Positions 2 through 64,000 of a stretch of DNA of 64,000 bases are shown here, in pieces. Position numbers and translations under genes: made by a program. The stretch is taken from NCBI RefSeq assembly GCF_002142155.1, contig NZ_NASD01000014.1, positions 1-64,000 on the forward strand, given 5' to 3'. The notes beneath the pieces are model-generated. The model searched no databases. It was not told the DNA's origin and saw only the letters and a program-made list of their open reading frames with translations. The stretch is from Gilliamella apis (GTDB lineage Bacteria; Pseudomonadota; Gammaproteobacteria; Enterobacterales; Orbaceae). The number at the start of each line of letters is the position of its first letter. The stretch's first letter is position 1.

Positions 2-385
2 GGTAAAGTTAACCAGACTTGGATATCATCTTGGTGTAATAGTTTGGGATATCGTCTCCCAAAGGTCAAGGATTTAACTAATGCGAGGAATTCTTATTGT
101 CCGGAGGGAAGAGATTGTCAAGGTGCAGAGCCTCGGTTCTCTGGTCGTCACTATCGTCTCATTGGTGCCGGATTTTTCTCGGAATGGGGGAATATGAACT
201 ATTACAGGGATGCTAAATTCGGCAGCGGCGTTAAAATCGACTTCGACAGATTCGCACTATATTGGACGTCGGATAACGATGGTAGGAGATTCTTTGTGGT
301 TAGCTGGTACACTGGTTTTGTGCTTTATGATACCACTGACAATAACAGGATACTCCCCCAATACGGAGTCTGTGTCTATCCTTAG
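2..385 (+). CDS. C-terminal fragment of a large surface protein (adhesin-like), 5' end outside window
   Basis: The reading frame is open from base 2 to the stop at 383-385, so this is the 3' end of a longer gene that starts to the left of the window. The TTG at 44 is not needed as a start. The roughly 127 visible residues contain a WCNSLGYRLPKVKDL motif near the start, a YWTS motif further on and a cysteine close to the end (GVCVYP). This W-C...GYRLP...YWTS pattern is typical of the C-terminal domains of bacterial Ig-repeat/invasin-like surface proteins and of DUF1566-like lectin-type folds. The actual role is not shown by the sequence; adhesion is an inference from that resemblance. A structured repeat follows about 130 bases downstream. 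Confidence 0.6.
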   Translation, partial: GKVNQTWISSWCNSLGYRLPKVKDLTNARNSYCPEGRDCQGAEPRFSGRHYRLIGAGFFSEWGNMNYYRDAKFGSGVKIDFDRFALYWTSDNDGRRFFVVSWYTGFVLYDTTDNNRILPQYGVCVYP

Positions 386-519
386 CTATTATTTTTTAGT
401 TCTTAGGTATTGAAGCTGAGGATAAGAAAAATAACGTTAGTGCATTAAATAATCATTGCCCTGCCAAGGCAATGACGTTGATGTTTACGAAGTGGGCGAT
501 AAAAAAACGATTTTGTAGC
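386..519. other. Intergenic segment with a hairpin
   Basis: This short stretch between the surface-protein stop codon and the structured repeat holds no credible ORF. It contains an 8-bp inverted repeat at 453-475 (arms TCATTGCC and GGCAATGA, loop CTGCCAA). No T-tract follows, so it is at best a weak terminator for the upstream gene. Confidence 0.5.
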
Positions 520-816
520 GCGACATTCGCAATGTGCTGACAACTGAGTGAGGTTAGCATGGCAAACAGGGATGTTTGGCAAGGCTGTGTTTTGTCAGGA
601 ACAAATCACAGCCGGTGCGTTAAGAGCGAACGAAGGCGGAAGGCAGTCACATCGTGACCACTTGCGTGGTCGCCGCGGGAGATTGTAAAGAGGGTTCGCG
701 CCAACCCTCTTAACTCGGACGTAATCGCCGTATAGAAATAACCACAAAACAACAAACGTCCGAAACTAAAACAACCAAAAAATTTTGAGGAACGGGGTTT
801 TTGAAAGCCCAAAATC
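520..816 (+). repeat. Structured dispersed repeat, copy A
   Basis: This is one full copy of a family also present at 62977, 63339 and 63742. By hand count about 60% of bases 616-720 are G or C, against a very AT-rich background. Perfect inverted repeats in order: ACATT/AATGT (523-535), CAAACA/TGTTTG with GGGA loop (563-578), GGCTGTG/CACAGCC (583-613), GTCAC/GTGAC (646-658), GACCAC/GTGGTC (656-671, overlapping the previous one), AAGAGGGTT/AACCCTCTT (688-711) and CGGACGT/ACGTCCG (716-762). The copy ends with the motif TTTTGAGGAACGGGGTTTTT near 783-802. Short ORFs across it are not conserved between copies. A structured RNA or a MITE/REP-like element are the main options. Confidence 0.85.
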
Positions 817-42257: not shown

Positions 42258-42334
42258 GGATTCCTCATATTAAAAATTCTTATTTTTAACAGAGATAGAG
42301 CGGGCATGTCTTACTACCGTTTAAAAAACACATA

Positions 42335-42503
42335 CCGTGAAGCGCTCCACCTGTTAGGGTGACAACCCAAGGGATTCAGCCCTTGTAGCCGATTCAATTG
42401 CTTTCTGGAATAACAATCAAACCTCGGCATTACACCCCATTAATCATCTCTTTACGGCTCCAGTTCCTAAAATGATCTACCTGAGTAATGCGCCTCTTCT
42501 TTT
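42335..42503 (-). promoter_or_regulatory. Lysine riboswitch (L box) controlling lysC
   Basis: Read on the minus strand, the leader contains the conserved blocks AGAAGAGGCGC, GGAGCC, GGGGTGTAATGCCGAGG, AATCGGCTACAAGGGCTGAA, TCCCTTGGGTTGTCACC and GGTGGAGCGCTTC, in the order of the enterobacterial lysC L box. The five-way junction arms are easily drawn. It ends about 80 bases before the lysC start (GAGG just before ATG), so regulation may act on translation or by termination. Confidence 0.95.
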
Positions 42504-42617
42504 TTTTGTAATATTGGTTACAAAATCAGTGTCATATAGGATTAACGATTTAACCAAGTGTGTCAATAGCCTAAATATTAAAAAAAATTATCGGTCTGGC
42601 TTAAAATAAATTGTTTT

Positions 42618-54923: not shown

Positions 54924-54926
54924 AAG

Positions 54927-55314
<388 letters not shown>

Positions 55315-62759: not shown

Positions 62760-62976
62760 TCATCGCTAATAAAATTTAGAATCAGTTTTAGTACCATCAA
62801 TAAGCTAACAACCAAGAATACATTAGCCAATTAAAAACCCCGTTCCTCAAAATTTTGTGGAACGGGGTTTTTAAAGCCTAAAATCCCGCCAATAAATCGC
62901 TAACGCTAGTTATAACATCAGCTAGTTCCAATAATAAAAGTTTATTTTTATCAATCAGTTTGATGCTTCTCATTTA
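62760..62976. other. Intergenic leader of the repeat array
   Basis: No gene is seen. It contains the palindrome at 62836-62875 and a spacer (AATCGCTAACGCTAGTTATAACATC, split here as AATCGCTAACG and TAGTTATAACATCAGCTAGT) that recurs between copies 3 and 4, near 63660. Confidence 0.6.
62836..62875. terminator. Perfect terminator-like palindrome built from two repeat ends
   Basis: The arms AAAAACCCCGTTCC and GGAACGGGGTTTTT pair over 14 bases around an internal CAAAATTTTG palindrome. It follows yfcA by about 75 bases and can terminate in both directions. The right arm equals the terminal motif of the structured repeats and the left arm its reverse complement. Confidence 0.85.
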
Positions 62977-63242
62977 GCGACTTTCGCAACGTGCTGACAA
63001 CTGAGAGAGGTTAGCATGGCAAACAGGGATGTTTGGCAAGGAGCGTTAAAAGCGAACGAAGGCGGAAGGCAGTCACGTAGTGACCACTTGCGTGGTCGCC
63101 GCGGGAGATTGTAAAGAGGGTTGGCGCCAACCCTCTTAACTCGGACGTATTCACCGTATAGAACTAGCCACCAAACAACAAAACGTCCGAAACTCAGCGA
63201 ACCAAAAAAATTTGAGGAACGGGGTTTTTAAAGCCTAAAATC
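62977..63242 (+). repeat. Structured repeat, copy 2 (internally deleted)
   Basis: This copy aligns to copy A but lacks about 31 bases, including the whole GGCTGTG/CACAGCC hairpin; the junction lies near 63040. The other stems are kept. Loop bases differ: GTCAC-GTA-GTGAC instead of ATC, and AAGAGGGTT-GGCGCC-AACCCTCTT instead of CGCGCC. Confidence 0.9.
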
Positions 63243-63338
63243 CCCTAAAGTTTCTCCGAAATTGGTTTTAAAACTAAAATTAGCTCGCTATAAACATAAG
63301 AGTTTATTTTGGCAAATAAGTTTGGTGTATTTAATTTA

Positions 63339-63650
63339 GCGACATTCGCAATGTGCTGACAACTGAGAGAGGTTAGCATGGCAAACAGGGATGTTTGCCA
63401 AGGTTGTGTTTTGTCAGGAACAAATCACAGCCGGTGCGTTAAGAGCGAACGAAGGCGGAAGGCAGTCACATCGTGACCACTTGCGTGGTCGCCGCGGGAG
63501 ATTGTAAAGAGGGTTCGCGCCAACCCTCTTAACTCGGACGTAATCACCGTATAGAAACAACCACAAAACAACAAAACGTCCGAAACTCAAACAATCCAAA
63601 AAATAAAGAACTAAAAAATTTTGAGGAACGGGGTTTTTGAAGCCAAAATC
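63339..63650 (+). repeat. Structured repeat, copy 3
   Basis: This full-length copy starts GCGACATTCGCAATGTGCTG and ends with the TTTTGAGGAACGGGGTTTTT motif. Here the second hairpin reads GGCAAACA-GGGA-TGTTTGCC, 8 bp, while copy A has only 6 bp (TGTTTGGC). There is a short insertion (AAATAAAGAACT) before the terminal motif. Confidence 0.9.
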
Positions 63651-63741
63651 CATCCAATAAATTGCTAACGTTAGTTATAACATCAGCTAGTTCCAATAAT
63701 TAAAGTGTATTTTGGCAAATAAGTTTGGTGTATTTAATTTA

Positions 63742-64000
63742 GCGACATTCGCAACGTGCTGACAACTGAGAGAGGTTAGCATGGCAAACAGGGATGTTTG
63801 CCAAGGCGGTGCTTTGTCAGGAACAAATCACAGCCGGTGCGTTAAAAGCGAACGAAGGCGGAAGGCAGTCACATCGTGACCACTTGCGTGGTCGCCGCGG
63901 GAGATTGTAAAGAGGGTTCGCGCCAACCCTCTTAACTCGGACGTAATCACCGTATAGAAACAACCCCAAAACTACAAACGTCCGAAACTCAAACAACTAA
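63742..64000 (+). repeat. Structured repeat, copy 4 (cut by window edge)
   Basis: This copy begins GCGACATTCGCAACGTGCTG and runs to the end of the window without reaching its terminal motif. It again has the 8-bp GGCAAACA/TGTTTGCC stem and the GGCNGTG/CACAGCC region, here with GGCGGTG, which breaks one pair. The array may continue beyond the window. Confidence 0.9.

What the first reader, a model, noticed from the sequence alone, without database searches (positions are those of the whole stretch)
62977..64000. Tandem array of GC-rich, hairpin-dense units with no coding capacity
Three direct copies start at 62977, 63339 and 63742, with cores of about 265-310 bases and AT-rich spacers of about 90-100 bases that are themselves similar. 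The cores are about 60% GC by hand count in their middle part, in a very AT-rich genome. They contain at least seven perfect short inverted repeats. Between copies the stems are kept while loops differ (GTCAC-ATC-GTGAC versus GTCAC-GTA-GTGAC; loop CGCGCC versus GGCGCC). This is what one expects from selection on RNA or DNA structure. The terminal motif is half of a terminator palindrome. It could be a multi-copy structured RNA, or a MITE/REP-like element moved by a transposase elsewhere.
Basis: partly seen in the sequence, partly recalled or inferred. Interest (0 to 1): 0.75.

Follow-up and report, generated by a model that had tools for sequence, protein, structure and literature searches.

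The report
Amplified CsrA-site-like RNA repeats in Gilliamella
In this bee-gut bacterium a structured RNA element that looks like a docking site for the global regulator CsrA is repeated dozens of times in small tandem arrays, many of them beside a large family of variable secreted-protein genes.

Summary
In detail: three direct copies at 62967-63191, 63328-63583 and 63731-63985, a fourth just beyond the window, a solitary one at 509-763, and 74 model matches in this Gilliamella genome. The unit is a real structured RNA: across six Gilliamella species stems change on both sides while the GGA loops stay. Two hairpins, a closing stem and an outer stem make it a divergent variant of Rfam RF01731 (TwoAYGGAY), which shares an Rfam clan with CsrB; the window copies score just under the family cut-off. 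Hairpin 1 carries the CsrA SELEX core ACARGGAUGU in 112 of 118 elements examined. That RF01731 binds CsrA was already proposed (PMC4333381). Not found in print in my searches: the amplification (74 to none per genome; no match in 14 of 35 Gilliamella genomes), the conserved 3' extension, the shared old sites, and the regular spacing to secreted-protein genes with hypervariable C-termini in two Gilliamella species. Best reading: when transcribed, arrays bind CsrA as decoys or UTR modules. Transcription and binding are inferred. A coding role and a diversity-generating retroelement are not supported; a MITE origin is weak.

The parts
62967..63191 (+). Unit copy 1, short form (225 nt; 31 nt with hairpin 2 missing)
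63328..63583 (+). Unit copy 2, full form (256 nt)
   Evidence: (R1 172.0 bits at 63338-63493)
63731..63985 (+). Unit copy 3, full form (255 nt)
   Evidence: (R1 169.9 bits at 63741-63896)
63379..63400 (+). Hairpin 1 of copy 2, with ACAGGGATGT (CsrA SELEX core ACARGGAUGU)
63402..63432 (+). Hairpin 2 of copy 2 (GGA in the terminal loop)
63782..63803 (+). Hairpin 1 of copy 3
63805..63835 (+). Hairpin 2 of copy 3
63017..63038 (+). Hairpin 1 of copy 1
63374..63444 (+). RF01731 match, copy 2 (38.3 bits, gathering 43)
63777..63845 (+). RF01731 match, copy 3 (40.7 bits, gathering 43)
63504..63533 (+). 3' hairpin P5 of copy 2; same hairpin at 63111-63140 and 63907-63936
63534..63583 (+). Terminal helix P6 TCGGACGT...ACGTCCGA of copy 2
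63192..63327 (+). AT-rich spacer (33% GC) with half-terminator motif
63584..63730 (+). AT-rich spacer (30% GC) with half-terminator motif
62831..62874 (+). Full terminator-like palindrome after the upstream gene; one arm recurs in the spacers
509..763 (+). Solitary unit copy at the other end of the window (blastn 520-783; R1 519-674)
2..385 (+). 3' end of a gene like the secreted-protein family, upstream of the solitary unit
   Evidence: (L039), by eye

Best explanation
Each ~255-nt unit is a divergent, Gilliamella-type variant of the TwoAYGGAY RNA: an outer stem encloses a short closing stem and two hairpins with GGA in their loops, followed by two further conserved helices. SHOWN by computation: the fold, its covariation, the relation to RF01731, amplification, shared sites and the regular spacing to a secreted-protein gene family. 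INFERRED: when transcribed (by read-through from neighbouring genes, or from promoters not recognised here), the paired GGA hairpins hold a CsrA dimer, so that arrays multiply binding sites and act as decoys for CsrA, and in this genome also as 3'-UTR modules of the secreted-protein mRNAs. Near identity within a genome is best explained by recombination among copies, which would also help the gene cassettes multiply. Rough confidence: structured RNA of the TwoAYGGAY type 0.9; CsrA binding 0.6; decoy or UTR role 0.4.
For: RF01731 matches window copies 3 and 2 at 40.7 and 38.3 bits, one own copy at the cut-off (43.0) and four G001 copies over it, and two G. bombicola copies over it. Model R1, built from Gilliamella alone, gives 22 matches at E<0.05 in 18 of 24 loci with RF01731 hits from other families, in 17 of them at an RF01731 place, and none in 3 CsrB control loci. 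Covariation: 12 of 32 pairs changed on both sides, score 0.233 against 0.033-0.077 for slid versions, 0 of 500 shuffles; 12 of 49 pairs in the full unit. ACARGGATGT in 112 of 118 regex-defined elements, equal to the core of the SELEX consensus RUACARGGAUGU (passage of PMC7652899). RF01731 and CsrB carry the same clan label CL00106. csrA is present once. CsrA binding by RF01731 was proposed on motif evidence (passages of PMC4333381). In this genome a same-strand unit lies 79-140 nt after the stop of 23 of 26 secreted-protein gene pieces with visible downstream units.
Against: No transcript data. Promoter-like and terminator-like sites around the array are near shuffle expectation (3 against 1.9, sd 1.4; 4 against 1.9, sd 1.6). 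14 of 35 Gilliamella genomes, 5 of them single-contig, have no match at E<=0.001, so the arrays are not essential. 21 of 66 elements of this genome lack hairpin 2. The loops are ARGGAY and NGGA, not AYGGAY; only one of 9 scanned relative loci passed the RF01731 cut-off, and G006, with 25 R1 matches, has no RF01731 match at E<=0.001. Orientation to neighbouring genes is mixed in G001. In G216 the distance from gene to downstream unit is not fixed (199-673 nt where near). The 112 of 118 are not independent, because copies in one genome are nearly alike.
Confidence: 0.5

Rival explanations
1. A REP/ERIC-like intergenic repeat kept mainly as DNA: palindrome-rich, spread and homogenised by recombination or an unknown mobiliser, with no RNA-level role.
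For: Matches per genome range from 0 to 74 in one genus; most full forms are 93-98% identical to copy 2 within this genome; mixed orientation; promoters near chance; RF01731 is multi-copy in other Enterobacterales too.
Against: GGA loops stay while stems change on both sides, as expected for recognition of a folded single strand; relation to an RNA family in the CsrB clan; shared sites between species.
Confidence: 0.3
2. Recombination cassette: units flank secreted-protein genes with variable C-termini and serve as homology blocks for their expansion and shuffling.
For: Unit 79-140 nt downstream of 23 of 26 gene pieces and 263-370 nt upstream of 14 of 16 in G000; 282-359 nt upstream of 17 of 18 in G216, counting only its 19 strong unit matches there; G216 proteins are about 40-55% identical to two G000 members; several contigs of this assembly end in arrays; C-terminal hypervariability.
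Against: G001 has 38 units but no tblastn hit to this protein family in its 9 fetched array loci; it does not explain loop conservation. It may be a consequence rather than the function.
Confidence: 0.35
3. MITE mobilised by a transposase elsewhere.
For: Interspersed and multi-copy; no match in some species.
Against: Arrays lie beside the same genes in G000, G006 and G001; no target duplication noticed at unit ends, not searched systematically; unit-free pgm flanks of G012 and G007, read by eye, are too diverged for an empty-site test.
Confidence: 0.08
4. A small protein is encoded (a 32-codon frame that opens in hairpin 1).
For: ATG opens 32 codons in copies 2 and 3.
Against: The 31-nt deletion shifts the frame in copy 1; the ATG reads CACG in most G001, and in the G. 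bombicola and G. intestini units aligned; no Pfam hit for the 79-aa minus-strand ORF.
Confidence: 0.02

Closest known systems
TwoAYGGAY RNA (Rfam RF01731)
   Same: Two adjacent GGA-loop hairpins inside a closing stem and an outer stem; multi-copy and sometimes tandem in other Enterobacterales.
   Different: Loops ARGGAY / NGGA instead of AYGGAY; different outer stem sequence; extra 3' helices P5 and P6; a short single-hairpin form; window copies under the gathering cut-off.
CsrB-type decoy RNAs (clan CL00106)
   Same: GGA hairpins fitting the CsrA binding consensus; same Rfam clan.
   Different: Two GGA hairpins per unit and dozens of dispersed units, instead of one RNA with many sites (recalled); no RF00018 match over cut-off in the 15 Gilliamella genomes searched.
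REP/ERIC-type intergenic repeats (recalled)
   Same: Interspersed, palindromic, intergenic, nearly alike within a genome.
   Different: Larger unit, covarying stems with fixed loops, shared sites between species, tandem arrays with long spacers.
LhrC multicopy sRNA of Listeria (title and start of abstract only)
   Same: Several copies of one sRNA.
   Different: Other fold and genus; far fewer copies (recalled).

Membership tests
RF01731 TwoAYGGAY | Score at or above the gathering cut-off (43 bits) | tested here: inconclusive
   Window copies 40.7 and 38.3: not met. Own copy C19:20921-20989 at 43.0 and four G001 copies at 43.3-45.9, G. bombicola L074 at 46.1 and 45.6: met. G006: no match at E<=0.001.
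RF01731 TwoAYGGAY | Two adjacent hairpins in a closing stem, within an outer stem | tested here: met
   reciprocal R1 search. Copy 1 and other short forms lack hairpin 2.
RF01731 TwoAYGGAY | AYGGAY in both terminal loops | tested here: not met
   Loops are ARGGAY and NGGA; only GGA is common. Hence described as a divergent variant, not as a typical member.
CsrA-binding decoy RNA | GGA hairpins fitting the CsrA binding consensus | tested here: met
   ACARGGATGT in hairpin 1 of 112 of 118 elements; consensus. Hairpin 2 has GGA in its loop but not the full core.
CsrA-binding decoy RNA | Is transcribed and binds CsrA | not testable with these tools
   No expression or binding data
CsrA-binding decoy RNA | CsrA encoded in the same genome | tested here: met
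   One match, C5:53415-53570, open frame 72 aa
CsrB (RF00018) | Match to the CsrB model | tested here: not met
   0 of 15 Gilliamella genomes over cut-off; best Gilliamella E 0.25. CsrC, RsmY and RsmZ models were not searched genome-wide.
MITE | Terminal inverted repeats and target duplication | not tested
   None noticed by eye at unit ends; no systematic test
Diversity-generating retroelement | Reverse transcriptase | tested here: not met
   PF00078: no match in the own genome

The most novel reading that the evidence does not exclude
A genome-scale, amplifiable CsrA decoy: dozens of tandem two-hairpin CsrA traps, built into the 3' ends of a variable secreted-protein gene family, so that expression or copy-number change of these genes feeds back on the global regulator and couples surface variation to the colonisation programme of a bee-gut symbiont.
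Probability: 0.2. Interest if true: 0.75.

Novelty: new variant of a known kind. Interest (0 to 1): 0.5.

Why it matters
TwoAYGGAY was listed in 2010 (PMC2864571) and still called a family of unknown function in PMC4333381. Here it occurs in extreme copy number in bee-gut symbionts, with a fold supported by covariation, fixed GGA loops, single-contig relatives with 0 to 38 matches for comparison, and a regular link to a variable secreted-protein family. That makes the CsrA-decoy idea directly testable and shows how a regulatory-type RNA can become a repeat family.

Tried and rejected
Protein coding: the 31-nt deletion shifts the frame, the start codon is not conserved, no Pfam hit for the minus-strand ORF. 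Phage or plasmid origin: no blastn match of 63339-64000 in either collection. Naming the other families through plasmids: no match. Diversity-generating retroelement, suggested by the variable C-termini: no RVT_1 match in the genome. Known domain in the secreted proteins: no Pfam or NCBIfam match in the 4 members scanned. Promoter in each unit: near shuffle expectation. A 12-of-12 promoter-like sequence before 14 of 17 secreted-protein genes overlaps an apparent ribosome site and ATG, and the copies are homologous, so it counts as one observation and is left open; 16 of 17 had some promoter-like site against 10.1 expected from mononucleotide shuffles. First genome contigs pattern: 0 hits; a degenerate one gave 21 stretches, all Gilliamella. 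My first regular expression was too narrow (26 elements) and was widened (119). One spurious hit (L122) was dropped after alignment A1, leaving 118. A2 used 28 of these 118, chosen by me for diversity; A3 used 24 of those 28. The literature search for multicopy CsrA-linked repeats gave 74 papers with at least 3 of 4 terms; 10 were listed and none read.

Full report
What is there. The window end holds a tandem array of a conserved ~255-nt unit on the + strand: copy 1 at 62967-63191 (short form), copy 2 at 63328-63583, copy 3 at 63731-63985, with AT-rich spacers of 136 and 147 nt. The contig continues for 733 bases and holds a fourth copy. A solitary copy lies at 509-763, after the end of a fragment that looks like the secreted-protein family described below. 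GC is 49-51% per unit against 35% for the window.

How many. blastn finds 76 cores of at least 100 nt in the 19 stretches fetched; covariance model R1 finds 74 in the whole genome at E<=0.001 (87 of 413 candidates were scored). R1 finds matches in 21 of 35 Gilliamella genomes (20 of 30 among those at least 90% complete), with 74, 46, 38, 38 and 25 in the richest five; 14 have none at that limit, among them five single-contig genomes (one of the 14 has a match at 0.0075). Outside Gilliamella 2 of the 9 family genomes searched have one match each.

Structure. Copy 2 folds at -88.07 kcal/mol, z -3.92. In 28 units from six species (G000, G006, G001, G. bombicola, wkB171, G. intestini), RNAalifold gives 49 pairs, 12 with kept pairs changed on both sides. 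With a structure that I named on 24 of these units (outer stem P1, closing stem, hairpins 1 and 2, P4), 94.5% of cells pair, 12 of 32 pairs have changes on both sides, and the covariation score is 0.233 against 0.033-0.077 for slid versions and 0 of 500 shuffles. Results against: one measure, further pair types, is not above shuffles (480 of 500 reach it); P1 pairs in only 83.2% of cells in that alignment, partly because this genome and G006 lack one base there (with one gap moved, most inner P1 pairs form, but the outer P1 pairs hold only in some species); one pair of hairpin 1 is a mismatch in 7 of 24. The structure was derived from these same sequences, which favours it in the slide control. 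The 3' part adds hairpin P5 (both sides change together at several pairs) and P6 (TCGGACG/CGTCCGA, nearly invariant, one pair changed on both sides).

Family. Rfam RF01731 (TwoAYGGAY) matches copies 3 and 2 at 40.7 and 38.3 bits, under the gathering score of 43. One own copy reaches 43.0 and four G001 copies pass at 43.3-45.9, while G006 has no match at E<=0.001. Of 9 relative loci scanned with the gathering score only L074 (G. bombicola) passes, at 46.1 and 45.6. Conversely R1 gives 22 matches at E<0.05 in 18 of 24 loci with RF01731 hits from other families, in 17 of them at an RF01731 place, while three CsrB loci included as controls give none; R1 E-values are rough. RF01731 itself is multi-copy in the order: 55 of 197 genomes have a match, 41 over the cut-off, 20 of 79 genera, and 0 of 14 control genomes; at most 13 candidates per genome were scored. 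The Gilliamella loops are ARGGAY and NGGA rather than AYGGAY, so this is a divergent variant.

CsrA. The SELEX consensus for CsrA is RUACARGGAUGU (passage of PMC7652899). Hairpin 1 reads ACARGGATGT in 112 of 118 elements. These were selected by a pattern that asks for the conserved ends, not for this loop, and copies in one genome are not independent; but the motif occurs in all six species while the stem beside it changes. RF01731 and CsrB carry the same clan label CL00106. PMC4333381 proposed on motif evidence that TwoAYGGAY RNAs sequester CsrA (passages); in the 2010 paper PMC2864571 the search found the name once, in a table row. The genome has one csrA match. No CsrB match over cut-off was found in 15 Gilliamella genomes; other Csr/Rsm RNA models were not searched genome-wide, so a diverged decoy RNA is not excluded. 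Of 66 elements of this genome in the set, 21 are the short form without hairpin 2, as is copy 1.

Where it sits. Arrays lie beside the same genes in different species (gene names here are my own reading). One site is pgm-guaB: G001 and G000 have units between the two genes; in G006 an array lies about 5.5 kb from pgm, next to a relative of the G000 gene that adjoins guaB, but guaB itself was not in the fetched stretch. G001 and G006 share both flanks of a LysR-gene site, and eight of the 19 G000 stretches share genes with G006 array loci, nine if the last-named pair is counted. Orientation to neighbouring genes is mixed in G001. In G000 the arrays alternate with a family of ~460-aa secreted proteins: of 28 gene pieces, 26 have a unit visible downstream, 23 of them at 79-140 nt on the same strand; 14 of 16 with a unit visible upstream have it 263-370 nt before the open frame. 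In G216, whose family members are about 40-55% identical to two G000 members, 17 of 18 have a unit 282-359 nt upstream, while downstream distances vary; this count used the 19 strong unit matches of those loci and left out the weaker ones. The proteins have a conserved N-terminal part and a hypervariable C-terminus (24 members aligned) and no Pfam or NCBIfam match in the 4 scanned. No reverse transcriptase was found, so a diversity-generating retroelement is unlikely. G001 has 38 units, and none of its 9 fetched array loci gave a tblastn hit to this protein family, so the unit does not depend on these genes.

Mechanism. The best reading is an amplified CsrA-binding RNA module that acts as decoy or, in this genome, 3'-UTR element when transcribed, homogenised by recombination. 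Fold, relation, amplification and positions are computed results; transcription and CsrA binding are inferences. Near-chance promoter and terminator scans and absence from some genomes speak against an essential sRNA gene in each unit. Rivals are a DNA-level repeat and a recombination block for the gene cassettes; these do not exclude CsrA binding.

Print status. 'twoayggay' occurs in 7 papers held (5 listed) and 'ayggay' in 9 (7 listed, some unrelated); I read passages of two of them, PMC4333381 and PMC2864571. No held paper has both Gilliamella and CsrA; Gilliamella with 'tandem repeat' gives 2 papers, and with 'surface protein' and 'phase variation' 1, all on other subjects by title and not read. 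In these searches I found no report of the arrays.

Noticed in passing
L021-L037 (own genome): Multigene family of ~460-aa secreted proteins, 28 gene pieces in the fetched stretches, conserved N-terminal part, hypervariable C-terminus, no Pfam/NCBIfam match in 4 scanned; a related family flanked by the same elements occurs in G216.
   Followed up: partly
upstream of these genes, e.g. L023 about 6150 on the minus strand: Three copies of a heptamer (CAACACA in 13) 143-263 nt upstream of the inner ATG in 19 of 20 genes: possible slippage site, but the copy number is the same in all.
   Followed up: partly
L069:4596-5163 and L071:5226-5433 (G006): CRISPR-DR4 repeat arrays (period 60) lie between element arrays and paralogous 615-630 aa ORFs; no cas gene search was made.
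   Followed up: no
L061:11921-12421 and L063:2957-3355 (G001): ORFs with a repeated peptide (HGCISRLE / CSRIGCLE), perhaps CRISPR-like repeats beside the elements.
   Followed up: no
L077:315-2961 (G008): Three tandem ORFs of 293-295 aa with near-identical N-termini beside a solitary element.
   Followed up: no
window 63475-63490: GACCAC-TTGC-GTGGTC can form its own hairpin that competes with the outer stem P1 (centroid); among the aligned units it is seen in this genome and, in part, G006: a possible two-state fold.
   Followed up: no
L082, L087, L088, L093 and similar, within about 100 nt of RF01731 hits: In other families a further AT-rich hairpin (such as CTTTTTCTT...AAGAAAAAG, then TCGCC...GGCGA) recurs beside the TwoAYGGAY elements (by eye).
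   Followed up: no
window 42332-42506 (-) and 54926-55314 (-): Lysine riboswitch and class A RNase P RNA: ordinary.
   Followed up: no
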